Position numbers and translations under genes: made by a program. Positions 2,966 through 17,753 of a DNA stretch of 64,000 nucleotides are shown piece after piece (positions within the stretch are counted from its first letter, which is position 1; every line of letters starts with the position of its first letter). Where the stretch lies: NCBI RefSeq assembly GCF_025231485.1, contig NZ_CP104003.1, positions 3,534,001-3,598,000 on the forward strand, given 5' to 3'. The DNA comes from Salinirubellus salinus (GTDB lineage Archaea > Halobacteriota > Halobacteria > Halobacteriales > Haloarculaceae). Under the pieces are notes generated by a model that ran no database searches, was not told the origin of the DNA, and worked only from the letters and a program-made list of their open reading frames with translations.

Positions 2966-3040
2966 GGGCACGTAGCTCAGCTAGGACAGAGCGTCGGACT
3001 TCTAATCCGATGGCCGTGGGTTCGAATCCCACCGTGCTCG
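2966..3040 (+). tRNA. tRNA-Arg (anticodon TCT)
   Basis: A 75-nt cloverleaf. The acceptor arm GGGCACG pairs with CGTGCTC (one G-U pair), the D-arm contains AGCTCAGCTAGG, the anticodon loop is CTTCTAA with TCT, and the T-loop is GGTTCGAATCC. The discriminator base is G and CCA is not encoded. The 3' half is the insertion target of the element that follows, and the tRNA stays intact because the element brings its own copy of the 3' end. Confidence 0.95.
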
Positions 3041-3042
3041 CT
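3020..3042 (+). repeat. attL, 23-bp direct repeat
   Basis: Begins GTTCGAATCCC and ends GTGCTCGCT. It covers the T-loop and 3' acceptor strand of tRNA-Arg plus two following bases. The identical sequence recurs at 17576-17598. Confidence 0.92.
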
Positions 3043-3079
3043 CCCGCGCATACGATGGCGGATTGCACATACGGAGCCG

Positions 3080-3108
3080 GGTTCAGGGTCGAATAAGCCC
3101 TGAATCAC
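3080..3108. repeat. Left inner palindromic repeat of the element
   Basis: GGTTCAGG and CCTGAATCAC flank an 11-nt spacer, forming an imperfect palindrome about 40 bp inside attL. The same pair in the same orientation, with a longer spacer, lies at 17499-17531 beside attR. By analogy with integrase arm sites or accessory-protein sites, these may bind the recombinase; this is inference. Confidence 0.6.
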
Positions 3109-3221
3109 ACGTGGTGTCCGTCATCTGGTGGGTTGCCAATCGATTAACCGTCCGTAGTCCCGTGATTCTGTTAGATATTGTAGCCGTAGATACTAGTAAC
3201 CTCGCCTCCTCACCTTACCAT

Positions 3222-3488
3222 ATGAGTGATGAAATTGACGCACTGGAGAAAATGGCAGAAGCTTGGGTCTTCATGGCAAAGGCAGAAACCCGACTTGCGG
3301 AAGCAGGCAAAGCAACTGACAACGACTACACGCACCAGAATCTCGTCTCGATGCACAAGGATATGAAACAGTCTGGACTCAACCTCCGCAAAGCTCTGGA
3401 GAACTCTCACAAAGGGGAGAAGCTGCTTGAGGAAGCCAGTGCGGAAATTGCTGAATGGGACGATATGGAAATGTCTGACGACGAGTAG
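3222..3488 (+). CDS. Small acidic helical protein, unknown function
   Basis: An 88-aa protein, predicted almost entirely helical from its pattern (many Ala, Glu, Lys, Leu; no Cys or Pro) and with an acidic tail. The ATG at 3222 was chosen because MSDEID is a typical haloarchaeal N-terminus and the open frame before it is low-quality AT-rich sequence. No family recognised. It is the first gene inside the left end of the element and is convergent with the integrase unit, with 2 bp between stops. Confidence 0.55.
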   Translation: MSDEIDALEKMAEAWVFMAKAETRLAEAGKATDNDYTHQNLVSMHKDMKQSGLNLRKALENSHKGEKLLEEASAEIAEWDDMEMSDDE

Positions 3489-3490
3489 CG

Positions 3491-3631
3491 TCACTCGGAC
3501 GCAAGCACGCTCGTCTCTTGCAGGCTCCCGTCGCATTCGGGGCAGTCGTCTTCTTCTAACTCCTGAAAAATTACTCCAGAGAACGGGCAGGAGTCGCAGC
3601 GGATGCCGACCATGGCCTCGCTCTCCTTCAT
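3491..3631 (-). CDS. Micro zinc-finger protein (two CxxC pairs) coupled to integrase
   Basis: A 46-aa protein with CDSCP near residue 13 and CPECDG near residue 32: two CxxC knuckles as in the CPxCG-type small zinc-finger proteins common in haloarchaea. Its ATG overlaps the TGA of the upstream integrase (ATGA, 3628-3631), so translation is coupled. It could be an excision or directionality factor, or simply a DNA/RNA-binding accessory protein. Function is inferred from position only. Confidence 0.65.
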   Translation of the reverse strand: MKESEAMVGIRCDSCPFSGVIFQELEEDDCPECDGSLQETSVLASE

Positions 3632-4221
3632 ACTAAACCAGCCTCAGTCATCATTGATATTGCAATCTCGTCGGGTACTCTCCCGATATAGTGGCTGGTG
3701 AATACCTGCTCACTATCCCATCCTCCCCAACTCATCACAGTCTGCTTCGCACGGTCTCCAGCAAGCTGGTAGTAAGTGAATGTAGCCCACGTTCTTCGCA
3801 AGTCGTGCGCAGTCACGTAGTCCCACTCTTCTTTCTCAGCAGCGAAGTGAGCGGCAGCTTCGTCTACCCAGTTCTGGATGGTCTTCGTAGTGTAACTCAG
3901 AATCGGCTCGTCTTGATGAAGGCTCTGCGCAGAAGTGAGAGCGTAGGCTGTTGTCTTGGTCGAAGCGGATACTGGACATTCTCTATGTCCCGTCTTCCCT
4001 TCTCGGATTGTCAGCATCCACCCTTCCTGTTCAGTCTCCATTCTGCGGAAGTCTTCTTTTCTAACTTGGATTACTTCATCAGCACGGAGACCGTCGAGGA
4101 GAAGCTCCACGGCAAGCTGTCGCTCTAAGTTTTCCGAGTAGTAGTTCTCAATCTGTTCTTGTTCGTCTTGGGAAAGCCAGCAGCGATAGCCAGCTTTCTC
4201 GTCGTAGGGTTCTAGTTGCAT
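3628..4221 (-). CDS. Short tyrosine recombinase/integrase
   Basis: A 197-aa protein covering essentially only the catalytic domain of the phage integrase family. It has the first Arg in LLLDGLRADEV (about residue 45), the HDLRRTW box (about residue 147), a Trp/Gly segment SWGGWDS and the nucleophile Tyr in FTSHYIG (about 179). The usual N-terminal core-binding domain is missing or reduced to about 35 residues, as in short integrases of haloarchaeal pleolipovirus-like elements. An imperfect palindrome (CCTAGCTCTAGG, 4231-4242) lies just before the start and could be an operator. It is read toward attL and overlaps the zinc-finger gene by 4 bp. Confidence 0.85.
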   Translation of the reverse strand: MQLEPYDEKAGYRCWLSQDEQEQIENYYSENLERQLAVELLLDGLRADEVIQVRKEDFRRMETEQEGWMLTIREGKTGHRECPVSASTKTTAYALTSAQSLHQDEPILSYTTKTIQNWVDEAAAHFAAEKEEWDYVTAHDLRRTWATFTYYQLAGDRAKQTVMSWGGWDSEQVFTSHYIGRVPDEIAISMMTEAGLV

Positions 4222-4405
4222 TCAATTATCCCTAGCTCTAGGTAGGTTCGCTTATTGCTTAAGATTTATGCGAAGACGAAATTCATCTTGCTCTGAGCGC
4301 TCAAACCCTACCCTTCAGGGAGGAGAAGTCGGGAAAACAGGGGTGTTTGAGAAGGTCGGTTCGTAGAATAGCCTACTCTCGGAAACACCGCCCTACACCA
4401 CAATT

Positions 4406-5461
4406 ATGTCTCTCGACCACAACCACAATCTGATGCATAAGCAGCTTTTCTCATTTGAAGAAGGGGGGAGTGAGAACGACAAGGGGACCGAAATTAATGT
4501 TAGTCTTTTTGAATTCGATAACGGCATCAGCCTTACAATTTCTCTCGAACACGTAGAAGACGAGTACGGTTCATTTTCAACAAAGTCTGAAGAAGAGATC
4601 GAGATTACAGGTTTGACTGAGGAGCAGCTTCATTCGATTCAAAACCTAATTGACGAGTTCCTTGAATCGGTGTCCAGAGCCACTATAATGGAATCTGTCC
4701 AAGGAATTGAAGGAGAGTATGTAGAACTAAATAACCTGTCGGGTCGGAATGGAAAGCCACGAGAACGAGATTTTCAGTTTGATGAGTTGCTAGTAAATGT
4801 AGGTGAGGTCTCTCTTAGTCTGAGTGGAAAAAAAGAGGACGGAGACTATGAGGGTGTGAAAGTACCTTCCGCTAAGAGACTTGAATCAGTCCCTCAGGAT
4901 GTGGAAATTCTAAGAACAATCAATAATGTCTTCTATGAATTTCTTATTAACCGCTACTCTGGTGATATCACTGGCTTAGACATTGAACAGCCCGACGACA
5001 TGGAAGTTGGTGCGGTCAGTCATGTCGAACTGATTTTCGATAGGTTTGGAGAGATATGTGACCAATTGAGGGAGCGAGACCGAGGTCGAGATCCCCTCAC
5101 TATGGATGATGAATACGATGTTCAGTATCTCCTGCATGGGTTGCTCAGACTCTACTTTGATGATGTTAGAGACGAGACATACCTTTCGAGAGTAGCGACG
5201 AAATCACCGCGCATTGATTTCTTACTTGAGGAACACGATATTGGTATTGAGGTTAAACGAGCCTCGGAGACCCGTCCAGTACGACGGCTTCTCACGGAAA
5301 TTTCAGAGGATAAGGAAGTGTACCGGAAAGACCCCCTCTGTGACACTCTATTAGTATTCATTTACGACCCTGAGCGCACGGAAACGAATCCAGCAGAAGT
5401 AGAGAAAGACCTCTCAGAAGCAACGAAGAACCTTACAACACGAGTCAAAGTAACTCGATAG
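4406..5461 (+). CDS. Stand-alone nuclease with DpnII/MboI-type PD-(D/E)XK domain
   Basis: A 351-aa protein. Residues about 230-345 match the restriction-endonuclease fold seen in DpnII/MboI-like domains: a helical lead-in (LLHGLLRLYFDDV), then RIDFLLEEHDIGIEVKRA, giving the catalytic Asp (about 270) and the E-x-K pair (about 282-284), then LLVFIYDPE, typical of the same family. Residues 1-200 are acidic, beta-rich and not recognised. No partner methyltransferase is adjacent; the nearest is hsdM, 1.5 kb away across an opposing gene. Codon use is AT-rich compared with the host. It is likely a defence nuclease; the target and trigger are unknown. Confidence 0.7.
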   Translation: MSLDHNHNLMHKQLFSFEEGGSENDKGTEINVSLFEFDNGISLTISLEHVEDEYGSFSTKSEEEIEITGLTEEQLHSIQNLIDEFLESVSRATIMESVQGIEGEYVELNNLSGRNGKPRERDFQFDELLVNVGEVSLSLSGKKEDGDYEGVKVPSAKRLESVPQDVEILRTINNVFYEFLINRYSGDITGLDIEQPDDMEVGAVSHVELIFDRFGEICDQLRERDRGRDPLTMDDEYDVQYLLHGLLRLYFDDVRDETYLSRVATKSPRIDFLLEEHDIGIEVKRASETRPVRRLLTEISEDKEVYRKDPLCDTLLVFIYDPERTETNPAEVEKDLSEATKNLTTRVKVTR

Positions 5462-5604
5462 AATCGACACTGCCGACAACGAAATACGAACCAGCCGGTG
5501 CGGGTCAGCGTAGATTGGCCACAACGCGGGCACTCCTTACCATTTGGAGGGACGCAAGCAAGATTTCTCGCGCTCGTTCAGAGACATAAGAGTACATCTC
5601 CTGA

Positions 5605-6528
5605 TCAGTTTGGAGAACTGGACTCCCGATAGCGCAGTTTCCTCAGCGTCCAATCTAAATCACGCAGTTGATAGGGGTCGTATCCCCGCGTCTCTCCGAA
5701 GTGCTGCTGGCACAGTTTCCATTCCCCATCAGGATAGCCATTAGGGGCGGGGAGACCTCGAGATGCTACCGCTGTACACCCTTTTGCCTGACACACCGGC
5801 TCTGGGGATTGCTCAGGGAGGACAGTCTCGTCACCTCGGGCAGCATCTTCCACTTCTCTAGCGTAGTCCTCTTGACTAATTGGTGGGTGGTTACGTACGA
5901 AGTGGTGAAGGGCGGCGGAATGCTCGTCTGGTATCTGGTCTGGAGCATAAAACCGCCAGTTCGGTTCTGCCATCGGGCCACGTCTGCAATGGAGGCGGTA
6001 GTCACGGAGGCGTGATTTCACCACAGCTTCGGCATAAAGAATAGTCTCCTCCTTGTCCACCCAAGTCGTGAGTACCTCGATCTCGCAACCCAATGCCTCT
6101 GCGCGGCGAAGCAAACGTTGGCGCTTCATCATGACCGCTTCGCGAGATGCCTCAAATACCGACTGGTAGAAATCGTCGGGGACGGGCAGGAAACAGGGGG
6201 GCATCTCGTATTCAGTGACGGACTCTCCCGCTCCCATTTGGATTTCGTATGTACTGTACTCCTCCTCATTTTCTTGTACAATTGGATGCCCAGCCGGAAG
6301 CTCGGGGCGTGCCATCCACTCTCCTTCACTCCTGACCGTGGCCTCTGGCTCGACCGTCCCGTCAATGGATAAGCGACCTTCCAATTCGACAGCGGGCGCA
6401 TTACTGGGCTTGGAGACGAGAACAACATCAATTTCGAATTCAACAGGGTGATCTCGCACTTGATACGCCGTCTCAAACGAGTCAATTTTTGTTCGTCCGT
6501 CAAGCCCATCGTCGTTCTTGGTAGACAT
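5605..6528 (-). CDS. Orphan protein with possible C-terminal zinc site
   Basis: A 307-aa protein of unknown function. The N-terminal 120 residues are acidic and beta-like. The central part (about 130-200) is helical and rich in Arg with paired Cys/His. Near residues 247-280 there are CQAKGC and, about 25 residues later, CQQHF, which together could bind zinc. A TATA-like stretch (AATATAAT, about 6553-6560 on the plus strand) lies about 27 bp before the ATG, suggesting a leaderless transcript. It is convergent with the nuclease gene and divergent from hsdM. It may be a defence accessory protein, but nothing in the sequence proves that. Confidence 0.6.
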   Translation of the reverse strand: MSTKNDDGLDGRTKIDSFETAYQVRDHPVEFEIDVVLVSKPSNAPAVELEGRLSIDGTVEPEATVRSEGEWMARPELPAGHPIVQENEEEYSTYEIQMGAGESVTEYEMPPCFLPVPDDFYQSVFEASREAVMMKRQRLLRRAEALGCEIEVLTTWVDKEETILYAEAVVKSRLRDYRLHCRRGPMAEPNWRFYAPDQIPDEHSAALHHFVRNHPPISQEDYAREVEDAARGDETVLPEQSPEPVCQAKGCTAVASRGLPAPNGYPDGEWKLCQQHFGETRGYDPYQLRDLDWTLRKLRYRESSSPN

Positions 6529-6539
6529 CGTACAAACAA

Positions 6540-6986
6540 GTCGGAGATGTGGTAATATAATTGTTTCGGCTATCTGGGGTGAGAACTAATAGAATATGGT
6601 TCTCAGACGGGTTTTTGAGAACAATTCTGGGCACATTAAGTTGTTTTGCGTATTATATTTCGAATATTGTCGTCTTCACGTCTCCGCTAGAACTCCCGTC
6701 AACGAATATATGTCTGATTTAGAAAGGTTACTTCGAAAGCATATCCGAGCGATTCGTTTGGGTATTGCTACATCTCTCGTGATTTCGGATCCGAGCAATC
6801 CTACAACATCGATTCCCCCCAAGCTACGCCGCCGCGAACGGGAATCTGTAGCCGAGACGGGGTGGCTCAGAGCAGGCTTCTGCACAACGGACTATCCGTA
6901 GATGCGTCGAGTATCATCAGCTCAGTTTTCGGCTAAACCGAACTCTCCACACCACTTATGAGCCTCTCTTTCCACGTGTGCTGTAG
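6540..6986 (+). promoter_or_regulatory. AT-rich intergenic region with hsdM promoter
   Basis: About 450 bp between two divergent genes. A TATA-like CACTTATGAG (about 6951-6960) lies close to 30 bp before the hsdM ATG at 6987, consistent with a leaderless mRNA. The minus-strand promoter for the 307-aa gene is at the left edge. A short open frame exists from 6710 to 6901, but it shows no good start context or haloarchaeal amino-acid bias, so I do not call it a gene. Confidence 0.5.
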
Positions 6987-8978
6987 ATGGTCGATAACTT
7001 CAACGAGAAGGCTGATTTCATTTGGTCTATTGCGGATCTTCTCCGTGGGGATTACAAGCAGTCCGAGTATCAGAAGGTCATCCTCCCGCTGACGGTTCTG
7101 CGCCGTCTCGACTGCGTGACCGAGCCGAGCAAAGAAGAAGTGCTGGAGCGATACGAGATGCTCCAAGAGCAGGGTGTAGAGAACGTCGCCCCCTCGCTCA
7201 AGCGTGTCTCCGGGCAAGAGGTCTACAACACGAGCGAGTACACGTTCGAATCGCTCTGTAACGACCCGGACCAGATTGCCAGCAACCTCCAGTACTACAT
7301 CAACTCCTACGACGAGGACACCAAGGAGATTTTCGAGAAGTTCGACTTCGGCCACCAGATCCAGCGCCTCGACGAGGCGGACCTACTCTACAAAGTCGTT
7401 CGGAACTTTGCCGAAATCGACCTCCACCCCGACGAAGTGCCGAACGAGGAGATGGGCTACATCTACGAGGAACTCGTTCGGAAGTTCAACGAACTCAGCA
7501 ACGAGACTGCCGGGGAACACTTCACCCCGCGTGAGGTCATCGAGCTGATGGTGAACCTCATCTTCGACAAAGACGACGAAGTGTTGACCGAAGATGGGGT
7601 CGTTCGGACGGTGTACGACCCAGCCTGTGGGACTGGGGGGATGCTCAGTGTCGCAGAAGACCACGTCCGCAGCCTCAACGAGGGCGCGAAACTCCACGCA
7701 TTCGGGCAGGAACTCAACCCCGAGACATACGCAGTCTGTAACTCGGATATGCTGATTAAGGGGCAGGACCCGGACAACATCGCGTATGGAAACTCGTTCA
7801 CCGACGATGGATTTCCGAGCCGGACCTTCGACTACATGCTCTCTAATCCACCCTTCGGGGTTTCGTGGAAGAAGGTCAAGGACGAGATAGAGCGTGAACA
7901 CGACGAGATGGGGTACGCCGGTCGCTTTGGCGCAGGGACCCCGCGAATCGACGATGGTGCATTACTATTCCTCCAACATATGATCGACAAAATGAAAAGT
8001 CCAGAGGAGGGCGGGTCACGAATTGCTATCGTGCTCAATGGCTCCCCGCTATTCACAGGAGGTCCTAATAGCGGTGAATCTGGCATTCGGAGATGGATAA
8101 TTGAGAATGATTGGTTAGAATCGATTATCGGCTTACCTGACCAGCTCTTCTATAATACGGAGATCCACACATACCTTTGGATTATTAACAATAATAAGCC
8201 TAAGAATAGACGAGGAGAGGTTCAGCTTGTTGACGCCCGTGATATGTACGAGAAGATGGACGAAGGGTTGGGCAAAAAACGACATAGAATCTCTGACAAG
8301 CAGATCTCTAAAATCGTCTCAACAGTCGGGACTCACCAGACGGAAGAACGATCAAAAATATTCTCTAATGAATCGTTCGGCTATCGGCGGATTGTGATCG
8401 ATAGACCATTACGGATGAGCTTCCGCGCAACTAAAGAGCGTATCAACAGCTTGGATGATGAGCGTGCCTTCACCAATCGTGATGAAGATATACAAGAGAG
8501 AGTGAAATCAGCACTTTCGGAAATTGACTCAGACAAGGTATGGATGAACCGGGACGAGTTTATCGACGAAGTAGAATTTCGGTTTAATATGGCGGGTCTT
8601 GACGTTCGGAAAAGTGTATATAACGCCGTTGAGAGGTCTCTTGGTGAACGAAATCCGGACGCAGATGTTGTTAGAGATAAGAATGGGAATCCAGAACATG
8701 ATATCGATCGACGAACTAGAGAAAGAGTTCCACTAGAGCAAGATCCAGAAGAGTACTTTGCAAATGAAGTGAAACCTTATGCAAATAATGCTTGGATCAA
8801 TGACTCAAAAAAATACTATGATGATGAGGATGGTCAACTGGGAGTTGTAGGATATGAAATAAACTTTGACAGGCATTTTTATCAATATGACTCACCCAGA
8901 GATCTTCAGGAGATAGACAGAGAACTCCAAAAGGTGAATCAAGAGATACGGAATTTACTTGATGAGGTGGCCAAGTGA
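6987..8978 (+). CDS. hsdM: Type I restriction-modification system, methyltransferase subunit
   Basis: A 663-aa N6-adenine methyltransferase subunit of a type I system. The N-terminal HsdM helical domain begins FNEKADFIWSIADLLRG. The AdoMet-binding motif DPACGTGGML is at about 211-220 and the catalytic NPPF at about 288-291. It is longer than the usual 480-540 aa, with about 150 extra C-terminal residues rich in charged helices. From roughly position 7970 to the end the DNA turns AT-rich (22 of 60 G/C at 8161-8220 against 36 of 60 at 7501-7560), so the gene is a composition hybrid. It is first in an operon with hsdS (GTGA overlap). Confidence 0.95.
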   Translation: MVDNFNEKADFIWSIADLLRGDYKQSEYQKVILPLTVLRRLDCVTEPSKEEVLERYEMLQEQGVENVAPSLKRVSGQEVYNTSEYTFESLCNDPDQIASNLQYYINSYDEDTKEIFEKFDFGHQIQRLDEADLLYKVVRNFAEIDLHPDEVPNEEMGYIYEELVRKFNELSNETAGEHFTPREVIELMVNLIFDKDDEVLTEDGVVRTVYDPACGTGGMLSVAEDHVRSLNEGAKLHAFGQELNPETYAVCNSDMLIKGQDPDNIAYGNSFTDDGFPSRTFDYMLSNPPFGVSWKKVKDEIEREHDEMGYAGRFGAGTPRIDDGALLFLQHMIDKMKSPEEGGSRIAIVLNGSPLFTGGPNSGESGIRRWIIENDWLESIIGLPDQLFYNTEIHTYLWIINNNKPKNRRGEVQLVDARDMYEKMDEGLGKKRHRISDKQISKIVSTVGTHQTEERSKIFSNESFGYRRIVIDRPLRMSFRATKERINSLDDERAFTNRDEDIQERVKSALSEIDSDKVWMNRDEFIDEVEFRFNMAGLDVRKSVYNAVERSLGERNPDADVVRDKNGNPEHDIDRRTRERVPLEQDPEEYFANEVKPYANNAWINDSKKYYDDEDGQLGVVGYEINFDRHFYQYDSPRDLQEIDRELQKVNQEIRNLLDEVAK

Positions 8979-10291
8979 CCCCAAGCAGGAAGTTCGGAGA
9001 GACAGGGGCGCGTGACGTGACCGAGGTTCGTCTGAACTATGTAACGGAGATAAACCCTTCAAAATCTGAAGTTTCGTCACTACCTGATGAAACTGAGGTG
9101 TCATTCATACCGATGGAGGATTTTGGGAGGAGAAATTCAATCAACGGATCAACGACACGTCCGATTAAGGAAGTGTATGATGGCTATACCTATTTTGCAG
9201 AAGGAGATGTTGTAATTGCAAAAATAACTCCTTGCTTTGAGAATCAAAAAGGAGCTATTTGCAGGAATCTTACAAACGGAATCGGATTCGGCACAACGGA
9301 ACTCTATGTCCTGCGTCCCAGCTCTGATCTCGAGCCACGATACCTCTGGTACGTATTGCGATCTAAGCCGTTCATGGATGACGGCGTGGCATCAATGAGA
9401 GGGGCAGCGGGTCAACAGCGAGTACCAAGTGAATTTGTAGAGAACTTTTCAATACCTCTCTATGAGCAAGAAACTCAAAGGGCAATTGCCGACTATCTGG
9501 ATGAGCGGATAACCAAGATAGATACCTTGATTGATAAAAAATCAGAGCTTCTTGACTTGCTCGAAGACAAGAAAGAGTCAATCACTACTGAGTACACAAC
9601 ACGAGGGGTTGACTCCCAAAATACGCTGAAGAGCGTTGAACAAGAGTGGGTGGGGAAAGTACCATCTCATTGGGAAGAAACACGAATTGGAAGTTTGATT
9701 GAGGAGGTCAAAAACCCGGTTGATGTAGATGAGTCAGAGGAGTACCAAGAAATTGGGATACGCTCATATGGGAAGGGGATATTCCACAAAGAACCAGTTG
9801 AAGGTGAAGATATCGGGGACAAGCGTGTGTTCTGGGTCGAGAATAATGCACTTATCTTTAATATTGTGTTCGCTTGGGAGGGGGCAGTCGCCGTAACTTC
9901 AGAGGACGAAGTAGGTATGATTGCATCGCATCGATTTCCGATGTACGTCCCAAAGCAAGATGTATGTTTAGAGTATTTGAAATATTTCTTCACCCATGGA
10001 TATGGGCAAGGGATCCTTGATTGGAACTCACCGGGTGCAGCGGGACGGAATCGGACCCTAAATAGGAGCGCAATGTTGAACGAACGATTTTGGTTTCCGT
10101 CTTTTGAGGAGCAGCAACGAATTGTAGAGTCAATTAGTAGGAAAGTGAATCTTATTGACGAATTATCGGGCAATATTGAAAAATCAATTGAACTTCTGAA
10201 GGAGAAAAGAGAGACCCTGATTACTGCAGCAGTCGCGGGGCAGATTGATGTCACAGAAGAGCAAGGTGAGGAACAAGAGTCCTTCGCATGA
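8975..10291 (+). CDS. hsdS: Type I restriction-modification system, specificity subunit
   Basis: A 438-aa specificity subunit with two target-recognition domains (about residues 1-170 and 200-380). Each is followed by a conserved helical region: EQETQRAIADYLDERI and FEEQQRIVESISRKV, then the usual KRETLITAAVAGQIDV end. It starts with GTG overlapping the hsdM stop and ends with ATGA overlapping hsdR, so all three genes are translationally coupled. The whole gene is AT-rich compared with hsdR and the 5' half of hsdM, which fits replacement of the specificity module by recombination. The recognition sequence cannot be read from the protein. Confidence 0.95.
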   Translation: MTPSRKFGETGARDVTEVRLNYVTEINPSKSEVSSLPDETEVSFIPMEDFGRRNSINGSTTRPIKEVYDGYTYFAEGDVVIAKITPCFENQKGAICRNLTNGIGFGTTELYVLRPSSDLEPRYLWYVLRSKPFMDDGVASMRGAAGQQRVPSEFVENFSIPLYEQETQRAIADYLDERITKIDTLIDKKSELLDLLEDKKESITTEYTTRGVDSQNTLKSVEQEWVGKVPSHWEETRIGSLIEEVKNPVDVDESEEYQEIGIRSYGKGIFHKEPVEGEDIGDKRVFWVENNALIFNIVFAWEGAVAVTSEDEVGMIASHRFPMYVPKQDVCLEYLKYFFTHGYGQGILDWNSPGAAGRNRTLNRSAMLNERFWFPSFEEQQRIVESISRKVNLIDELSGNIEKSIELLKEKRETLITAAVAGQIDVTEEQGEEQESFA

Positions 10292-13251
10292 GCAGTAAGT
10301 ACGACGAGCAGGCGTTTGAGACCCACATAGAACAGCACCTGCTTGATGGTCAGTACGAGCAGCTCGACTCCGACGAGTTTGATGCCGAGCGGGGACTGTT
10401 CCCCGACGTGCTTGTCTCGTTCGTCAAAGACACTCAACCTGATCGCTGGCATCAATTGGAGACTGCCTACAAGGGGAATGCCCGTCAGCGGTTCCTTCAG
10501 GAACTTACGAGTGCCCTTGAAAGACAAGGAGCGCTAGAACTCCTACGCCACGGTCTCAAAACCACGGGAACTGTAATCAAACTCGCCTTCTTCCAGCCTA
10601 ACACCGGAAAGAACCCAGAGATTCAGAAGCAGTACGAAGCCAATCGGCTTGGGGTCACCCGGCAGTTCTACTACTCGGCGACGAAAGAGTCGCCCAGCAT
10701 CGACCTCGCTTTGAGCGTCAACGGCATTCCTGTGGCGACAGCAGAGCTGAAGAACCCCGCTACTGGTCAGACTGTTGAAAACGCCAAACAGCAGTATAAA
10801 CAGGACCGAGACCCCGGTGAACCGGTACTCAAATTCAAGCGCGGGTGCTTGGTCCACTTTGCGGTAGACCCGAACGAGGTTGAGTACACCACCGAGATAG
10901 ACGGCGAAGACACGTACTTCCTCCCGTTCAACAAGGGTCACGACGGGGGTGCGGGAAACCCACCGAACGAGAACGGTCACCGGACAGCGTACCTCTGGGA
11001 GGAGGTTTGGGCGAAGGACTCGTGGATGGAAATTCTCCAGCGTTTCATACACATCGACGAGGAGGAGATCCGCAAGGACGGCGTAAAGGTGGAAGAAGAG
11101 GAGACGATGATCTTTCCCCGCTACCACCAACTGGAGTGCGTTCGTCAGCTGGTGGCCAGCACGCGTGAAGACGGGGCTGGAGAGGACTACCTTGTCCAGC
11201 ACTCTACTGGGAGCGGTAAGAGCAAGTCTATCGCGTGGCTGGTCCACCGACTGGTCTCTCTCCACAACGATGCAGACGAAGCTGTGTTCGACGGGGTTGT
11301 CGTCGTCACTGACCGAACAGTCCTTGACGAGCAGCTCCGGAACACCATCTACGAACTCGATCACAAGACTGGCGTCGTCCACGCAATCAAGGGAGAGGGA
11401 CAGTCGAAGTCGAAGGAACTCGCGGAGGCACTCGAAGCTGGGAAGCCAGTCGTCATCACCACTCTCCAGACGTTCCCCTACGTCATCGAGCACACGCAAG
11501 GACTACCAGACCGAGACTACGCCGTGGTTGTCGATGAGGCGCACAGTAGCCAGACTGGGGAGATGGCGAAGGAGATGAAGCAGATACTCGCGGGAGAAAA
11601 CATCGAGGAGGATGACGACTGGGAGGACCTCCTCGCCAAGAGCGCCTCAGCGCGGGGGAAACAGGACAACCTCAGCTTCTTCGCTTTCACCGCGACGCCC
11701 AAGGGGAAGACGCTGGAGGCGTTCGGAGATGTCCCCGAGGGTGGAGACAAACCTGAACCGTTCCACGTCTACTCGATGCGACAGGCAATCGAGGAGGGAT
11801 TCATCCTCGATCCTCTCCAGCACTACACCACCTACGACACGTTCTATAACATCGCCAAGGTCATCGAGGAAGACCCACAGGTGCCGCAAAAGAAGGCTGT
11901 CAAGGCGGTCTCGAAGTTCCTCAAGCTTCACCCCCACAACATTTCGCAGAAGGTGGAAATCATCGTCGAACACTTCCGCAATCACACTCAGCACAAGATA
12001 GGGGGAAAGGCGAAAGCGATGGTCGTCACGTCCTCGCGGCTCCACGCCGTGCGGTACAAGAAGGCGATAGACAAATACATCGAGGAGAACGGGTACGATA
12101 TCGGTGCGCTAGTGGCCTTCTCTGGGACGGTTGACGACGATGGCATCGAGTACACAGAACAGGGAATGAACGACGGTATCAAGCAGTCAGAACTGCCCAA
12201 CAAATTCAGCTCGTCGGACTACCAAGTGCTGGTCGTAGCGGACAAGTACCAGACTGGCTTCGACCAGCCACTCCTCCACACGATGTACGTGGACAAGAAG
12301 CTCTCTGGGGTGCAAGCGGTTCAGACCCTTTCCCGTCTCAACAGGACTCATCCGGGGAAAGAGGACACGTTCGTCCTCGACTTCGAGAACGATCAAGAGG
12401 ACATCTACGACGCTTTCAAGCCCTACTACGAAACAACGACTGTCGAGGAGACGACCGACCCCCAGCACATCTACCAGCTGGAGTCGGAACTCGACGCGAT
12501 GCAGATGTACAGCCGCGAGCAGGTAGACAAGTTCGCGGAAGCCTTCTTCAGTCCCGATAACCGAGCGACTGAGCAAGCCCATGCGAAATTGAGTAGTCTC
12601 GTCCAGCCCGCCCACGACAACTTCATCGTCGCGGATGAGGAGACGCAGGACGAATTCCGGTCGAAGCTTCGCTCATTCCTCCGTCTCTACAAGTTCCAGT
12701 CGCAGGTCGTGACCTACGAAGATACTCGGCTCGAGAAGCTGTACACGTTCGGACGGTTCCTCTACAAGGAACTGCCCCGCAAGTCTGGTGAGTCACGGGT
12801 CGAGTTCAACGATGAACTGGCACTCCAGTACTATCGGCTAGAGAAGTCTGGTGAGGGGAAAATCGAACTTGGTTCTGGAGGGGGAGAGGTCTCGGTGCCA
12901 ACGGAGACTGGTACCGGTGGCAAAGACGACGAAGAAGTCGAACTGTCGTCCATCGTCGAGAAAATCAACGAGGCACTTGGGACCGACTTTACCGAGGCTG
13001 ACCAGCTGTTCCTTGATCAACTGAAAGAAGACGCGCTGGAGGATGACCATCTGCGACGGTCCGCGCAGGTGAATAGCCCCGAGAATTTCGCGCTTGAATT
13101 TGACGACACGCTAACCGACATGTTCATCGACAGGATGGACCAGAATCAGGAACTCTTTGCGAAGTTTATGGACAACGACGAGGTGCAACAGGCGATTACG
13201 AAACACCTCCGTCGAGAGGTCTACGAGGAGAGCCAGACTGCCGACAGTTGA
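10288..13251 (+). CDS. hsdR: Type I restriction-modification system, restriction/translocase subunit
   Basis: A 987-aa motor and nuclease subunit. The N-terminal PD-(D/E)XK nuclease is marked by SIDLALSVNGIPVATAELKN (about residues 136-155). The helicase core follows: Walker A HSTGSGKSKS (about 305-314), DEAH box VVVDEAHSSQ (about 412-421), motif III FTATPKG (about 466) and motif VI QTLSRLNRTHPG (about 679). The C-terminal third is charged and helical, for contact with HsdM/S. All key residues are present, so the system looks functional. Base composition returns to host-like values at the start of this gene. Confidence 0.95.
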   Translation: MSSKYDEQAFETHIEQHLLDGQYEQLDSDEFDAERGLFPDVLVSFVKDTQPDRWHQLETAYKGNARQRFLQELTSALERQGALELLRHGLKTTGTVIKLAFFQPNTGKNPEIQKQYEANRLGVTRQFYYSATKESPSIDLALSVNGIPVATAELKNPATGQTVENAKQQYKQDRDPGEPVLKFKRGCLVHFAVDPNEVEYTTEIDGEDTYFLPFNKGHDGGAGNPPNENGHRTAYLWEEVWAKDSWMEILQRFIHIDEEEIRKDGVKVEEEETMIFPRYHQLECVRQLVASTREDGAGEDYLVQHSTGSGKSKSIAWLVHRLVSLHNDADEAVFDGVVVVTDRTVLDEQLRNTIYELDHKTGVVHAIKGEGQSKSKELAEALEAGKPVVITTLQTFPYVIEHTQGLPDRDYAVVVDEAHSSQTGEMAKEMKQILAGENIEEDDDWEDLLAKSASARGKQDNLSFFAFTATPKGKTLEAFGDVPEGGDKPEPFHVYSMRQAIEEGFILDPLQHYTTYDTFYNIAKVIEEDPQVPQKKAVKAVSKFLKLHPHNISQKVEIIVEHFRNHTQHKIGGKAKAMVVTSSRLHAVRYKKAIDKYIEENGYDIGALVAFSGTVDDDGIEYTEQGMNDGIKQSELPNKFSSSDYQVLVVADKYQTGFDQPLLHTMYVDKKLSGVQAVQTLSRLNRTHPGKEDTFVLDFENDQEDIYDAFKPYYETTTVEETTDPQHIYQLESELDAMQMYSREQVDKFAEAFFSPDNRATEQAHAKLSSLVQPAHDNFIVADEETQDEFRSKLRSFLRLYKFQSQVVTYEDTRLEKLYTFGRFLYKELPRKSGESRVEFNDELALQYYRLEKSGEGKIELGSGGGEVSVPTETGTGGKDDEEVELSSIVEKINEALGTDFTEADQLFLDQLKEDALEDDHLRRSAQVNSPENFALEFDDTLTDMFIDRMDQNQELFAKFMDNDEVQQAITKHLRREVYEESQTADS

Positions 13252-13342
13252 TGAGATTCATTGGGGAGCCGCTGATTACAATATAATTCCGCTCGGTCCG
13301 TATCAGGACCCGGTAGCCAGAACAGCTATATCTGTACTTGTG

Positions 13343-13633
13343 TTACAAGTGCGCTCGCTCAAACGCTTCTTCAGCTTTATTCTGCATATCGTCAGTCATC
13401 GACTCAAACATCGCCCGATTATACCAGCGTAAGCAAGCCTCAAAGGTCTCTGCTCCCTCAAGTTCGAGCAACTCGGTGCCATTGATAAAACCAGTACCAA
13501 GCCGCTTCTTGCGCTCTATCTGCACGTCTCTGACCATCTTGTGCTTCATCTTACTCATCTCGCTCTCTGATGGAGGCGTAGCACCCTCATAGGCAATCTC
13601 CGCTGAGGTCGGCATCGCATCAAAAGTCGTCAT
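13343..13633 (-). CDS. Small protein, last gene of a micro-ORF operon
   Basis: A 96-aa protein with a polar N-terminus and a helical, Met/Glu-rich C-terminus. Its ATG overlaps the TGA of the preceding 49-aa gene (ATGA at 13630-13633). No family recognised. It is the third of three overlapping minus-strand genes between hsdR and the 309-aa gene. The stops of hsdR and this gene face each other 92 bp apart. Confidence 0.5.
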   Translation of the reverse strand: MTTFDAMPTSAEIAYEGATPPSESEMSKMKHKMVRDVQIERKKRLGTGFINGTELLELEGAETFEACLRWYNRAMFESMTDDMQNKAEEAFERAHL

Positions 13634-13779
13634 TGCTTGTCACCCCGGATCTTAGCAGCCTGTTCCTCCAACTTCTCTGCCTGCTCTCGCAATCTCTCCG
13701 CTCCATCTTCCAATTCGTCAGCAACCGAATCATCGCGAAATGAGAGAGCAAATCCATCATCCAGTGGCTCGGTACGCAT
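13630..13779 (-). CDS. 49-aa acidic coiled-coil micro-protein
   Basis: Translates as a short protein with an N-terminal MRTEPLDDG and then a heptad-like helix of repeated Glu-Gln/Lys-Leu. It overlaps the upstream stop by one base (TAATG at 13777-13781) and the downstream start by four (ATGA), so it is clearly part of a coupled unit even though it is small. Possible roles are dimerisation or antitoxin-like; this is speculation. Confidence 0.5.
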   Translation of the reverse strand: MRTEPLDDGFALSFRDDSVADELEDGAERLREQAEKLEEQAAKIRGDKQ

Positions 13780-14033
13780 TACGTACCACCTCCAATCCGG
13801 GCGAGCAGCTTGAGTGCGTAAATCGCGTCATCAACGTTGAAATCCCTGAATTGAGTGTTGGTCAGTTGCTCACGTGCCCCTTCGAGCTTTTCAGCGACTC
13901 TTGATGCATCCTCTGGAGTCTCGCACAAGTCTGCAAACCGCCAGTACAGTTGCTCAGAGCGAGGAGTGATCCAATTCACCGACTGTTCCACATCGTGCTT
14001 CCGTGATTGGAAGCTGCAGTTACATCCTGTCAT
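13779..14033 (-). CDS. Small protein, first gene of micro-ORF operon
   Basis: An 84-aa protein with a Cys pair close to the start (TGCNCSF) and a helical remainder. A TTTAAG/TTATTTTTT stretch about 45-50 bp before the ATG (around 14070-14085) is the likely promoter. It is followed with a 1-base overlap by the 49-aa gene. No family recognised. A later in-frame GTG could be the true start, giving a protein without the Cys pair. Confidence 0.5.
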   Translation of the reverse strand: MTGCNCSFQSRKHDVEQSVNWITPRSEQLYWRFADLCETPEDASRVAEKLEGAREQLTNTQFRDFNVDDAIYALKLLARIGGGT

Positions 14034-14265
14034 CGTTATCTAAAGGTTGATTACTATCTACACACTCGTAGGAAAAAATAACTTAAATATTTGTCGGCTA
14101 TATGGGTCGAGAATTGGTCGTACGCACGTATATGGGGTGTCAAAATACGCAGAAACGCAATAAAAGCTACAAATTCGTAGCTCTCGCTCACTCAGCTGTT
14201 AGTTCCGTAGTAAGCGTCAACCCGACCAGCAAACACGATAAAATCGAGTTAAAACAGTCCACGAA

Positions 14266-15195
14266 TCAAACCGGTGCTTCGTGGTTCTCTCTCCAGTTTG
14301 ATTGGACATACTCCCGTAAGTCGTCATCCAGTAGACCCGCGTCATCGTAAGCCCGTAGGACACGCGTAGCCGTCTGATAACCTGCAAAATCATACGTGCT
14401 GACAACAGTCACGATCTTGCCAACGTCCTCCTGAACTTCAGTGCGCACCGGCTTGTCAATCAAGTTGTTTGACCCGATTTCTAGGCTGACACCAAGGTTG
14501 TCCTTGATTGACGACCCAAATTCTTCCTCGTACTTCCGACGGGCAGTAGCCTCCGAATCCTTCGAATTTTCCCCTATTGTATATCGCGCTCGGTGGTCGT
14601 TCTGCTGGATACCAGTTTCCACAACTGCATTAAGAAGGTCGTCTTCATCCACTATTTGATTAGTCTCGTACTTGATGTACTCCCGAGCGTACCGTCCGAT
14701 AGTAGACCGCCCATAGCCAGCGATTTTGTACGCTTGCTCCACCGAGTCGCGGTCTGAAGTCTCCCAGAACCGGAGAATTCCAGTAATGAGGTCGTCCGCA
14801 TCATAGGGAGATGCCCCACGACCAGACGCAGCTTCTAACGCTTCTTGACTCCAGTTGTCGGGATTGACTTCTACATCATCTTGCTCAAGATGGTCAGCAA
14901 GCTCAATGGTCTCCTCCGACCAGCTTTCAGATTGGGATGGAGAGGCATCCGCAGGAGGGTTAACAGTGTGTGTTGTATTTTCAGGTACACCCATCATCTC
15001 CGCGACCCACGAGTGGATATCGTCAACTTGGGATTCCATCGACCCGTCTGGATTGTACGACTGGACGATGCGGTCTAAGACCAAACCCTTCTTTTTTGAC
15101 GTTCCATACCACTCTTCCTGCAATTCTTCTAAGATACGATTCGTTTCCGCGTCAACCGGTACGTTGACTGTCGTTTTCTCGTCTGACATGTCCAA
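14266..15195 (-). CDS. Element protein with ribbon-helix-helix-like N-terminus
   Basis: A 309-aa protein. Residues about 8-50 (TTVNVPVDAETNRILEELQ, then KKKGLVLDRIV) resemble the beta strand and two helices of a ribbon-helix-helix DNA-binding domain. A Ser/Pro-rich acidic linker (about 70-105) leads to a helical C-terminal region with GYGRSTIGRYAREYI (about 165), which may be a second helix-turn-helix. The start at 15195 has TATA-like TATAAATAG about 25 bp upstream, so the mRNA is probably leaderless. Plausible roles are element regulator, partition or replication control; none is proven. Confidence 0.55.
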   Translation of the reverse strand: MDMSDEKTTVNVPVDAETNRILEELQEEWYGTSKKKGLVLDRIVQSYNPDGSMESQVDDIHSWVAEMMGVPENTTHTVNPPADASPSQSESWSEETIELADHLEQDDVEVNPDNWSQEALEAASGRGASPYDADDLITGILRFWETSDRDSVEQAYKIAGYGRSTIGRYAREYIKYETNQIVDEDDLLNAVVETGIQQNDHRARYTIGENSKDSEATARRKYEEEFGSSIKDNLGVSLEIGSNNLIDKPVRTEVQEDVGKIVTVVSTYDFAGYQTATRVLRAYDDAGLLDDDLREYVQSNWRENHEAPV

Positions 15196-15237
15196 TTTGG
15201 CTCAGGAAATAGCACTATAAATAGTCTTTGGCAACTC

Positions 15238-15310
15238 GTATGTTTTATCTTATATATTATAAATAATAAATGTTAGTTAGTAAGTAGTGTATGTGTATAT
15301 TGGTAATAGC
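15238..15310. other. Strongly AT-rich tract
   Basis: A run of mostly A and T (including TTATATATTATAAATAATAAATG) between the 309-aa gene and the small genes to its right. It is the most AT-rich stretch in the element. It may be a promoter region or a DNA-unwinding site for replication of the excised element. No clear iterons were seen. Confidence 0.4.
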
Positions 15311-15473
15311 AACAACCAATCAGCCTGTGTCAACCAACTCTAAACTTCTGCCAGAAGCCGTCTGTAACAGTATCTTGTTCAGCCGTGGTCCCCCCCGATG
15401 ACAGACCACCGTCTAAATCAGAAACAAACACACACTCTCGTACTGGCTGTGCGGGGCTTATCCTTCTCGGCTG

Positions 15474-15608
15474 TTACTCATCCCGGTCAGCGGCAATCCT
15501 AACATCATAGAACCGAGGATTGGCTTCCAGTCGCTCCTCAGCTTTCTCCCAGTCGATATCCTGCTCAGATAGACATTGCAGCTTGGTCTCAATCGTCTTG
15601 TCGTCCAT
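15474..15608 (-). CDS. 44-aa micro-protein coupled to wHTH regulator
   Basis: A short charged protein with a Trp-containing helix and a C-terminal IAADRDE tail. It starts at ATG 15608 inside the last codons of the upstream wHTH gene (20-bp overlap), so translation is likely coupled. No family recognised. Confidence 0.45.
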   Translation of the reverse strand: MDDKTIETKLQCLSEQDIDWEKAEERLEANPRFYDVRIAADRDE

Positions 15609-16125
15609 TGGAAGTCAGGACTGCCATCTCGACGTTCCGTCCCTCCACCTCTCCATCCAATAACTCAACAAGCCGCTCAATGCGAGTATGCGCAAGCTTG
15701 GCTCCGTCGTTGTTCGTTTCAACTCGCTCAGTGATCTCTCGCATCTTCTCCGGTAACGTCTGATTGATGTATTCCTTCACCTCTTCTAATTTTTCCTCAT
15801 GCTCGCTTACCTGTTCGCTTAGGTCCTCTACCGCCAATTCTAATTCCTCAACCCGTTCGTTTCCAATGGAGAAGCGGGCTTGGCCACTCTCGGTCAGGGT
15901 GTAGTGGGCGACCTCGTTCCCATTGACCTCTCTACTGTATTCCTCGACTAGCCCTGTTTCTAACAGATGCTCGTTGACGGCGTGCCGGACTTGGTGCTTC
16001 TCTAAGCTCTGGACTCCGGCGTTACCCGAGGCGTCTGCTATCTGTTTTAGAGATGCTGGTCGGGGGTACTGACTGATTGTCTGCAGTACTCTATCGGCGT
16101 TGACACTGATTTTCTGTTGGCTCAT
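15589..16125 (-). CDS. Winged-helix plus coiled-coil regulator
   Basis: A 178-aa protein. Residues about 8-80 have the pattern of a winged helix (VLQTISQYPRPASLKQIADA, then a recognition-helix-like segment, then LTESGQARF at the wing end). Residues about 88-160 form a long acidic coiled coil. This layout is common in haloarchaeal plasmid and virus regulators. It probably controls genes of the element, perhaps the neighbouring integrase. The operator is not identified. Confidence 0.6.
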   Translation of the reverse strand: MSQQKISVNADRVLQTISQYPRPASLKQIADASGNAGVQSLEKHQVRHAVNEHLLETGLVEEYSREVNGNEVAHYTLTESGQARFSIGNERVEELELAVEDLSEQVSEHEEKLEEVKEYINQTLPEKMREITERVETNNDGAKLAHTRIERLVELLDGEVEGRNVEMAVLTSNGRQDD

Positions 16126-16248
16126 ACTCTGTACTACGTGTTTTCTGTTGCAAAGGGCTGTACCTGCGAGGGAGTGTCTGCACGCTCCGACTGCTGTCCT
16201 TGGGGGACTGCCAGCGATGCCGATTCCCGAGGAGGGGTGCAGAATGGA

Positions 16249-16467
16249 TTACTCCTGCTCGACCCGCACCTTGATCTCCTGCTCATCTTCCTTTTGAGTG
16301 GACCCCCCGAAAGTCCCCAACACGAAGGCGAGTCCAAGGACTCCATACATCAATATATCTGTCATCAGTAAGTCAGCCAGCCAAGCGTAATCCATGCTCC
16401 AGTACAGGATGGCGATGTACACGATAGCAGCTCCAATAGCCGTCTTAATCCCGTCTGCTGCTCCCAT
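16249..16467 (-). CDS. Small two-helix membrane protein
   Basis: A 72-aa protein from ATG 16467, with hydrophobic segments at about residues 10-25 and 38-55, a Gly-rich start and a charged Lys/Glu tail. A TATA-like GATTATC lies about 26 bp before this ATG, which favours it over the TTG at 16476. Small membrane proteins are common in haloarchaeal viruses and islands. No function can be assigned. Confidence 0.5.
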   Translation of the reverse strand: MGAADGIKTAIGAAIVYIAILYWSMDYAWLADLLMTDILMYGVLGLAFVLGTFGGSTQKEDEQEIKVRVEQE

Positions 16468-16531
16468 ACCTACCAAGACGGCAGAAGATCAGATAATCAT
16501 ACTTTAGACGACTCTGAAGATATCAACCCAG

Positions 16532-17491
16532 TCAGTCAGTGAAGAACTGCCTTCGCTGCTCCATCTTCGTTCGCTCATCTCTCCCATCATAGTGCTTCTC
16601 AAGAATCCGCTCAGACACCTGCGCTCTATCTGAAACCACCTCTTTGGGTTTATCTGACTCCAGCCAGTGAGTGATAGCTCCTCTCCTCCACGCATGCGCT
16701 CCTACGCTGTTCTCACATTCGTATTTGTAGTTCGTATTTTTCCCGCAGTCACACTCAGCGTAGAACTCCGGGCAAGTCACCCTGTATGACCACTTTCTGA
16801 TAGTATTGGCTGCAATCCTACCGTTAGGTGTAGTCAACAAGGGATGACGACCGTGTTCATCCTGCGTGTCCAAGCGGTTCTCAGCGATGTAATCATCCAA
16901 GACAACACAGGTAGGGGATGAGAGGGAGACGAGCCGCTGTCCATTGTCTGCGTTCTTGAGAGGGGTAGAGTATTCAGGGCGGTGATGAAATTCGATATAC
17001 TGCTGTTCAGCGTTGTAGTCTTCCACATCAAGCCCTCTAACCGCTCCAGTGCGAGCGGCAGTCTCCCAAAAAATCTGAAACAAAGCATGTTCCTTCGAAG
17101 CGTAGCGGAACTTGTCCAACTGATTCAGAATCTGCTCTGCTTTCTCTCTGGGAACGATATCATCTCGAACGTTCTCAGAGTCCGTCAGCGTGGGAGATTC
17201 AGCAACCTCATGGACTCCTTCCTCGGCAAAATCCAGCTTCTCAATATACCGGAGGCAGGCTCTCAGCGTGTCAGTATTGGCTTTGTAGGTGGTCTTAGCC
17301 AAGTCTTGCTTTCGGTGTTGGAGGAAGTCGTGAACGTCTTTTTTCGAGACGTTCTCAATCTCTTCGAGTCCGTTTTCCTCACACCACTCAACGAAGAAGC
17401 GGAGGCGGTATTCGTAAGCCTCGATGGTCTGTTGGCTAAGCTCTGAGCTTCGGTGTTCTACGTAAATCTGGATGGCGTTCTCTATTTTCAT
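16532..17491 (-). CDS. Full-length tyrosine integrase
   Basis: A 319-aa site-specific recombinase. The N-terminal SAM-like core-binding domain spans about residues 1-100 (LSQQTIEAYEYRLRFFVEW). The catalytic domain shows the first Arg in TAARTGAVRGL (about 153), HAWRRGAITHW (about 265) and the nucleophile Tyr in EKHYDGRDE (about 299). A Cys-rich insert (CPEFYAECDCG and a later Cys) sits just before the HxxR box and may bind zinc. The gene abuts attR (stop-to-start direction away from it, 84 bp between its start and attR), so this is the likely enzyme that placed the element in tRNA-Arg. Confidence 0.9.
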   Translation of the reverse strand: MKIENAIQIYVEHRSSELSQQTIEAYEYRLRFFVEWCEENGLEEIENVSKKDVHDFLQHRKQDLAKTTYKANTDTLRACLRYIEKLDFAEEGVHEVAESPTLTDSENVRDDIVPREKAEQILNQLDKFRYASKEHALFQIFWETAARTGAVRGLDVEDYNAEQQYIEFHHRPEYSTPLKNADNGQRLVSLSSPTCVVLDDYIAENRLDTQDEHGRHPLLTTPNGRIAANTIRKWSYRVTCPEFYAECDCGKNTNYKYECENSVGAHAWRRGAITHWLESDKPKEVVSDRAQVSERILEKHYDGRDERTKMEQRRQFFTD

Positions 17492-17498
17492 GGTCTCG

Positions 17499-17531
17499 GG
17501 TTCAGGTGTATTCGATTGTTGCCTGAATCAC
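17499..17531. repeat. Right inner palindromic repeat of the element
   Basis: GGTTCAGG and CCTGAATCAC around a 15-nt spacer, in the same orientation as the left copy at 3080-3108. It lies immediately upstream of the integrase start at 17491, so it could serve both as a recombinase arm site and as an operator for int. Confidence 0.6.
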
Positions 17532-17575
17532 GAGATTTCGAACAGTTCGGGTGGGTGAGACCCTCTTTGAGTGGC

Positions 17576-17598
17576 GTTCGAATCCCACCGTGCTCGCT
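17576..17598 (+). repeat. attR, 23-bp direct repeat
   Basis: Identical to 3020-3042 over 23 bp. The bases before it do not continue the tRNA, so this is a 3'-end fragment and marks the right end of the element. Confidence 0.92.
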
Positions 17599-17677
17599 TC
17601 TGCGAGCGCCAGCGAGCAGAGCGAGCTACGGGACCCGAACCACGCGAGACGAGCGAAGCGAGTCTCGCCTCGGGTGA

Positions 17678-17694
17678 GAATCCCACCACGCTCG
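17678..17694 (+). repeat. Partial tRNA-Arg 3'-end remnant 1
   Basis: GAATCCCACCACGCTCG matches the tRNA 3' end at 15 of 17 positions, about 80 bp outside attR. It could be the scar of an earlier integration at the same tRNA. Confidence 0.45.
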
Positions 17695-17753
17695 TCGGTC
17701 ACTCGGTTCGCTCCTCGCACGGTGTCCCTCGCGAAGCCCGCGGCTTCGCTCGG

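What the first reader, a model, noticed from the sequence alone, without database searches (positions are those of the whole stretch)
3020..17598. tRNA-Arg-integrated island with a 23-bp att pair and a complete defence cargo
The exact 23-bp duplication of the tRNA 3' end, integrases at both ends and A/T-rich cargo define a discrete element of about 14.6 kb. It carries type I restriction genes plus an orphan nuclease and at least eight genes I cannot name. It lacks virus structural genes, so it may be a satellite, plasmid or defence island that moves with helper functions.
Basis: partly seen in the sequence, partly recalled or inferred. Interest (0 to 1): 0.78.

Follow-up and report, generated by a model that had tools for sequence, protein, structure and literature searches.

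The report
Archaeal defence island at tRNA-Arg
A 14.6-kb block of foreign DNA sits at the end of a tRNA gene in a salt-loving archaeon; it belongs to a lineage of integrating elements, some of which carry the coat genes of a membrane-vesicle virus, but this one carries anti-virus restriction genes instead of virus particle genes.

Summary
tRNA-Arg(TCT) (2966-3041) is followed by a discrete element bounded by an exact 23-bp copy of the tRNA 3' end (3020-3042, 17576-17598); G+C is 51% inside and 70% outside. The repeat alone proves little, because element-free relatives also carry tRNA-3' remnants just downstream. The proof is that the joined flanks align unbroken across the junction to the empty site in 10 of 20 relatives. 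The right-end integrase belongs to a well-supported seven-member clade. All seven carry a tRNA-Arg(TCT)-like core beside that integrase, and the intact tRNA lies at the far end in the six whose contigs reach it. All seven also have a second, catalytic-domain-only tyrosine recombinase. Four carry a gammapleolipovirus-like (His2-like) cassette. Three (this one included) lack it, and all three carry defence genes: here type I restriction-modification plus a DpnII/MboI-AgaN-type nuclease. So this is an ordinary kind of haloarchaeal integrative defence island, but a new variant: a virion-less, defence-loaded sister of pleolipovirus-like proviruses. It has no detectable replication, virion or conjugation gene, and neither cassette protein tested occurs elsewhere in its genome. 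Satellite behaviour is possible but unproven.

The parts
2966..3041 (+). tRNA-Arg(TCT), intact; integration target
   Evidence: ARAGORN
3020..3042 (+). attL core, 23 bp (3' end of the tRNA)
17576..17598 (+). attR core, 23 bp exact copy; native tRNA-downstream DNA starts at 17599
3222..3488 (+). small helical ORF, 88 aa, no family
3491..3631 (-). 46-aa ORF with CxxC...CxxC (zinc-ribbon-like)
   Evidence: sequence read directly
3628..4221 (-). intL: 197-aa catalytic-domain-only tyrosine recombinase; about 200-aa homologues are widespread, so it is not an obvious truncation
4406..5461 (+). nuclease, 351 aa: two predicted N-terminal beta4-alpha repeats plus C-terminal DpnII-MboI PD-(D/E)xK domain similar to AgaN
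5605..6528 (-). 307-aa protein; unknown N-terminal part, C-terminal Cx4C..Cx2H domain shared with other haloarchaeal islands, including the element at the same site in G237
6987..8978 (+). HsdM, type I methyltransferase (663 aa; PADLOC MTase_I 911 bits)
8975..10291 (+). HsdS, specificity subunit with two target-recognition stretches
10288..13251 (+). HsdR, restriction/translocase subunit (987 aa; HSDR_N, SWI2/SNF2)
13343..13633 (-). 96-aa ORF, unknown
13630..13779 (-). 49-aa coiled ORF, unknown
13779..14033 (-). 84-aa ORF, unknown
14266..15195 (-). 309-aa protein; N-terminal segment shared (24% overall) with a 309-aa protein of island L178; structure model failed
15589..16125 (-). 178-aa predicted winged-helix plus coiled-coil protein; similarly built proteins in islands L178, L190, L163 at 19-23% identity
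16249..16467 (-). 72-aa predicted membrane protein
   Evidence: hydrophobic stretches read from sequence
16532..17491 (-). intR: XerC/D-like integrase (319 aa), start codon 85 bp from attR; tRNA-Arg(TCT)-associated clade
17674..17696 (+). degenerate tRNA-3' remnant outside the element (17 of 23 bases), matching the native tandem remnant of relatives
18566..19657 (-). right-flank marker: M29-type aminopeptidase, found next to this tRNA in relatives

Best explanation
This is a site-specifically integrated mobile element of 14,556 bp. Shown: it occupies the 3' end of tRNA-Arg(TCT) exactly; its flanks are contiguous in relatives; its integrase lies next to attR as in six other clade members; it carries a complete type I restriction-modification operon and a PD-(D/E)xK nuclease; and no replication, virion or conjugation gene was recognised. 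Inferred: intR recombines attP and attB through the 23-bp core, rebuilding the tRNA, with intL or small DNA-binding proteins perhaps steering excision. HsdRMS protects the host and the element against unmodified incoming DNA, and the nuclease acts as an additional effector triggered by foreign or damaged nucleic acid. The element shares its integrase clade, target and two-recombinase layout with pleolipovirus-like proviruses, and in this lineage a virion module and defence cargo come and go. This copy is the virion-less, defence-loaded form; it is vertically inherited as a tRNA-anchored island and moves only occasionally (cell mating, or helper-borne transfer).
For: Empty site: joined flanks align across the junction in 10 of 20 relatives, while similarity on the element side stops within about 8 nt of the tRNA end; the flank past attR matches native tRNA-downstream DNA of G028 and G008; the tRNA and the M29 gene lie 459 bp apart in G004 and G097. 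Integrase geometry: the same layout at tRNA-Tyr, tRNA-Phe and tRNA-Arg(TCG) in other genomes. Clade of seven, support 99/97, score gap 468 to 393 bits; TCT site with repeats of 19-25 bp in G237, G431, G364 and G309, imperfect 20/26 in G235, core only in G413 where the contig ends; second recombinase in 7 of 7, of two kinds. Pleolipovirus cassette in G309, G235, G364 and G431. Defence cargo in G413 (KwaA, KwaB, type IIG), G237 (GmrSD, Mrr, PLD-SNF2) and G235 (GmrSD-like); nuclease also in G309. Cargo here.
Against: No read data, so excision and a circular form are not shown. The empty sites are in other genera, not in sister strains. intR is on a long branch (0.68) and its place inside the clade is less certain (89/86) than the clade itself. 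Several proteins have no assigned function (AF2 of the 309-aa protein failed), so an unrecognised replication or mobilisation gene cannot be excluded. That the defence genes are active is inferred from intact reading frames and motifs.
Confidence: 0.82

Rival explanations
1. Satellite of a pleolipovirus: the element excises, is replicated and packaged by a co-resident or incoming helper virus, and in return restricts competing viruses.
For: Same site, integrase clade and two-recombinase layout as provirus-like elements with a His2/HHPV-type NTPase and His2 VP1-like protein. The 14.6-kb size lies within the range of pleolipovirus genomes (about 7-16 kb, PMC13107129). Three of seven clade members lack the cassette and carry defence genes. 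Haloarchaeal virus satellites have been reported (Zhou et al. 2025, known here only as a reference in PMC13107129).
Against: No gene or site for hijacking packaging was identified. Two cassette families (phrog_1979, phrog_2231) are absent from the host genome. The cassette-less G237 element is 34 kb, too large for known pleolipovirus genomes.
Confidence: 0.12
2. Decayed provirus: a pleolipovirus-like provirus that lost its virion and replication genes and gained restriction genes, now immobile.
For: Clade sisters G309 and G235 carry the cassette. No replication gene found.
Against: Both recombinases, the att cores and the hsd genes have intact frames. No remnant of the two cassette proteins with profiles (NTPase, 290-aa membrane protein) or of the primase was found in six frames. 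Cassette-less members lie in two sub-branches with their own defence sets.
Confidence: 0.2
3. Integrative plasmid with an unrecognised replication protein.
For: Three relatives carry a primase-helicase (G237, G431, G413). The 309-aa and 307-aa proteins are unassigned.
Against: No Rep, primase or MCM match in Pfam, PHROGs or NCBIfam. The two largest unknown proteins tested have no plasmid homologue.
Confidence: 0.1
4. Chance or tandem tRNA remnant: the second 23-mer is a pre-existing tRNA-3' remnant and the low-G+C region arrived by another route.
For: Tandem tRNA-3' remnants exist in element-free relatives.
Against: DNA beyond attR is the immediate native tRNA-downstream sequence and the next remnant is still present beyond it. 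Joined flanks align across the junction in 10 relatives. The same architecture recurs in the clade.
Confidence: 0.02

Closest known systems
Integrase-bearing genomic islands with restriction genes in Halorubrum ezzemoulense (PMC11078007)
   Same: Integrase, low G+C (40-55% against 68%), tRNA proximity, many unknown genes; there the island-borne restriction genes occur only on integrase islands
   Different: Here the site, the empty site, the integrase clade and the relation to pleolipovirus-like proviruses are resolved; two recombinases
Integrating pleolipoviruses SNJ2, HHPV4 and HRPV9
   Same: Nearest viral integrases (35-37% identity); integrating viruses of similar size; HHPV4 encodes a restriction endonuclease (PMC10101028)
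   Different: The window element has no spike, NTPase or replication gene and carries type I restriction-modification
Gammapleolipovirus-like proviruses at tRNA-Arg(TCT) found here (G309, G235, G364, G431)
   Same: Same integrase clade, same tRNA, second tyrosine recombinase; G309 also has the nuclease
   Different: They carry an NTPase/spike-like cassette; the window element does not
Haloferax virus LSV-48N (PMC12714723)
   Same: Homologues of both intR (35%) and intL (36%) in one genome, plus a DNA methyltransferase
   Different: A 24.9-kb lemon-shaped virus with structural genes
AgaN, nuclease partner of a prokaryotic Argonaute (PDB 23wq)
   Same: C-terminal nuclease domain (E 5.5e-11)
   Different: No Argonaute next to it here; predicted N-terminal beta4-alpha pair instead

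Membership tests
tRNA-site integrative element (tyrosine integrase) | Intact tRNA at one end and direct repeat of its 3' end at the other | tested here: met
tRNA-site integrative element (tyrosine integrase) | Empty site in relatives equals the joined flanks | tested here: met
tRNA-site integrative element (tyrosine integrase) | Excised circular form | not testable with these tools
   no reads held
Type I restriction-modification | hsdM, hsdS and hsdR present, complete and adjacent | tested here: met
Type I restriction-modification | Methylation and restriction activity | not testable with these tools
   needs a methylome or a plating assay
Pleolipoviridae (provirus) | NTPase and spike cassette | tested here: not met
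   six-frame profile search with clade NTPase and 290-aa membrane proteins finds none in G000; no PHROG match
Pleolipoviridae (provirus) | Integrase of the group | tested here: met
   35-37% to HHPV4, SNJ2, HRPV9; tree
Virus satellite | No virion genes but shared integration site and integrase with helper-like proviruses | tested here: met
Virus satellite | Helper-dependent replication or packaging | not testable with these tools
   two cassette families absent from own genome; needs infection experiment
Integrative conjugative element | Relaxase or type IV secretion genes | tested here: not met
   no Pfam or NCBIfam match
SSV-type (suicidal) integration | Integrase gene split by the att site | tested here: not met
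   attR lies 85 bp outside the intact intR frame
AgaN / Argonaute-associated nuclease system | Argonaute gene adjacent | tested here: not met
   no Argonaute match among the tested island proteins

The most novel reading that the evidence does not exclude
A lineage of haloarchaeal tRNA-Arg(TCT) elements with two tyrosine recombinases switches between pleolipovirus-like proviruses and virion-less defence-carrying satellites that use those viruses for transfer: an archaeal, vesicle-borne counterpart of bacterial phage satellites that carry antiviral systems.
Probability: 0.12. Interest if true: 0.78.

Novelty: new variant of a known kind. Interest (0 to 1): 0.47.

Why it matters
It ties one archaeal attachment site and one integrase clade to two states, virus-like and defence-only, in closely related elements. 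That gives a tractable system for asking whether archaeal membrane-vesicle viruses have satellites, and how restriction systems travel in haloarchaea. It also points to a small haloarchaeal nuclease family, found on such elements and alone, that could be a stand-alone defence effector.

Tried and rejected
The 309-aa, 307-aa and 178-aa proteins were tried as element markers. Only domain-level relatives of the first two were found, and the 309-aa and 307-aa proteins have no homologue in the phage and plasmid collections tried. The first 30 intR loci had no credible tRNA within 1.5 kb because the intact tRNA lies at the far end; widening the search resolved this. An IMG/VR scan with intR gave nothing. 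AF2 of the 309-aa protein failed (pLDDT 35). AF2 of the nuclease was usable only in its N-terminal half, and the PUR/Whirly resemblance is weak (best E 0.015), so it is offered only as a lead. SSV-type split integrase, conjugative element and chance repeat were rejected (see membership tests).

Full report
Setting. The window lies on the 4.13-Mb main replicon of a haloarchaeal genome. Outside the element G+C is about 70%; between the repeats it is 50.7%.

Observation. tRNA-Arg(TCT) is at 2966-3041. GTTCGAATCCCACCGTGCTCGCT occurs exactly twice in the window, at 3020 and 17576, in direct orientation. The spacing is 14,556 bp. In relatives, near copies of the tRNA 3' end commonly sit 75-100 nt behind the tRNA even without an element (22-24 of 24 bases). 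The repeat alone would therefore be weak evidence.

Empty site. In relatives the tRNA is followed by a convergent M29-type aminopeptidase gene, the same gene that lies at 18566-19657 here; the gap is 459 bp in G004 and G097. The DNA just right of 17598 matches the DNA just right of the tRNA in G028 and G008, and the next degenerate tRNA-3' copy is still there. With the element left out, the joined flanks align through the junction in 10 of 20 relatives, whereas on the element side similarity stops within about 8 nt of the tRNA end. The insertion point is therefore inside the 23-bp core.

Gene content. From left to right: small ORFs; intL (197 aa); a nuclease (351 aa); a 307-aa protein with a C-terminal zinc-type motif; hsdM, hsdS and hsdR; small ORFs; a 309-aa protein; a predicted winged-helix/coiled-coil protein; a small membrane protein; intR. 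HsdM matches a PADLOC type I model over its whole length (911 bits). No replication, virion or conjugation family was found.

The integrase. intR homologues occur in 125 of 148 genomes of the family. In other genomes they show the same layout: an intact tRNA at one end and an exact copy of its 3' end 80-195 bp upstream of the integrase start (tRNA-Tyr 30 bp, tRNA-Phe 32 and 35 bp, tRNA-Arg(TCG) 42 bp). One of these, in G001, carries hsdM/hsdR-like genes. A profile of intR and its closest relative separates seven members (468 bits or more) from the rest (393 or less), and the tree supports the clade at 99/97. Four of the six relatives (G237, G431, G364, G309) have tRNA-Arg(TCT) and an exact repeat of 19-25 bp. 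G235 has the tRNA and an imperfect copy (20/26). G413 has a core beside intR but its contig ends before the tRNA. tRNA-Arg(TCT) is listed among the most used archaeal integration sites (PMC8371274). All seven have a second, catalytic-domain-only recombinase: one family in G000, G235, G309 and G413, another in G237, G364 and G431. The second kind was recognised from its sequence and position and was not tested against a family library.

Relation to viruses. G309, G235, G364 and G431 carry a cassette whose ATPase matches the NTPases of His2, HHPV3, HHPV4 and HRPV-3; in G309 the large secreted protein matches His2 VP1 weakly (E 3e-4). The nearest viral integrases are those of HHPV4, SNJ2 and HRPV9. 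LSV-48N has homologues of both recombinases. The window element, G237 and G413 lack the two cassette proteins for which four-member profiles were built. These three carry defence genes: type I plus nuclease; GmrSD, Mrr and PLD-SNF2; Kiwa A and B plus a type IIG enzyme. G235 (GmrSD-like) and G309 (nuclease) carry both a cassette and defence genes. Cassette-less members fall in two sub-branches, so cassette and cargo have been exchanged or lost more than once; direction is not resolved.

The nuclease. The PD-(D/E)xK residues (RxDFL..GxEVK) are essentially invariant in eight homologues, and the C-terminal domain matches AgaN. In the seven relatives examined the gene has lower G+C than most neighbouring ORFs, and in G172 and G298 it sits alone among host-like genes. 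The N-terminal half is predicted as two beta4-alpha repeats, faintly like PUR/Whirly nucleic-acid-binding folds. A stand-alone effector is my inference.

Judgement. The island is real and of a known kind (integrase islands with restriction genes, PMC11078007). What is new is the resolved lineage: one clade, one tRNA, two recombinases, with virion and defence modules alternating. It is not a pleolipovirus provirus, because the cassette test failed. Whether it is a satellite cannot be decided: NTPase and phrog_2231 searches of the host genome found no helper candidate, and no packaging data exist.

Noticed in passing
L165:8081-9112; L167:8123-9175; also L163, L164, L166, L168, L169: Homologues of the window nuclease have lower G+C (38-48%) than most of their neighbours, and in two genomes stand alone between host-like genes; possibly a single-gene mobile defence.
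   Followed up: partly
L104, L105, L107, L108, L109, L111: Tandem degenerate copies of the tRNA-Arg(TCT) 3' end 75-100 nt downstream of the tRNA in element-free genomes; perhaps scars of earlier integrations.
   Followed up: partly
L227:15461-15700: In G413 the DNA next to the attR-like core contains what looks like a decayed tRNA (TAGCTCAG...GACTTCT...).
   Followed up: no
L178:2035-14293: G197 island beside a prematurely ending endonuclease III-like frame, with a large adenine-methylase-like protein (1197 aa), a serine-recombinase-like protein and relatives of the window's 309-aa and 307-aa proteins; possible insertion into a protein gene.
   Followed up: partly
G000:C1:4125503-4126410: A further M29 peptidase copy in the host genome appears split into two frame-shifted pieces near the contig end.
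   Followed up: no
L108, L111, L112, L103: tRNA-Arg(TCT) carries an intron in several relatives but not in the window.
   Followed up: no
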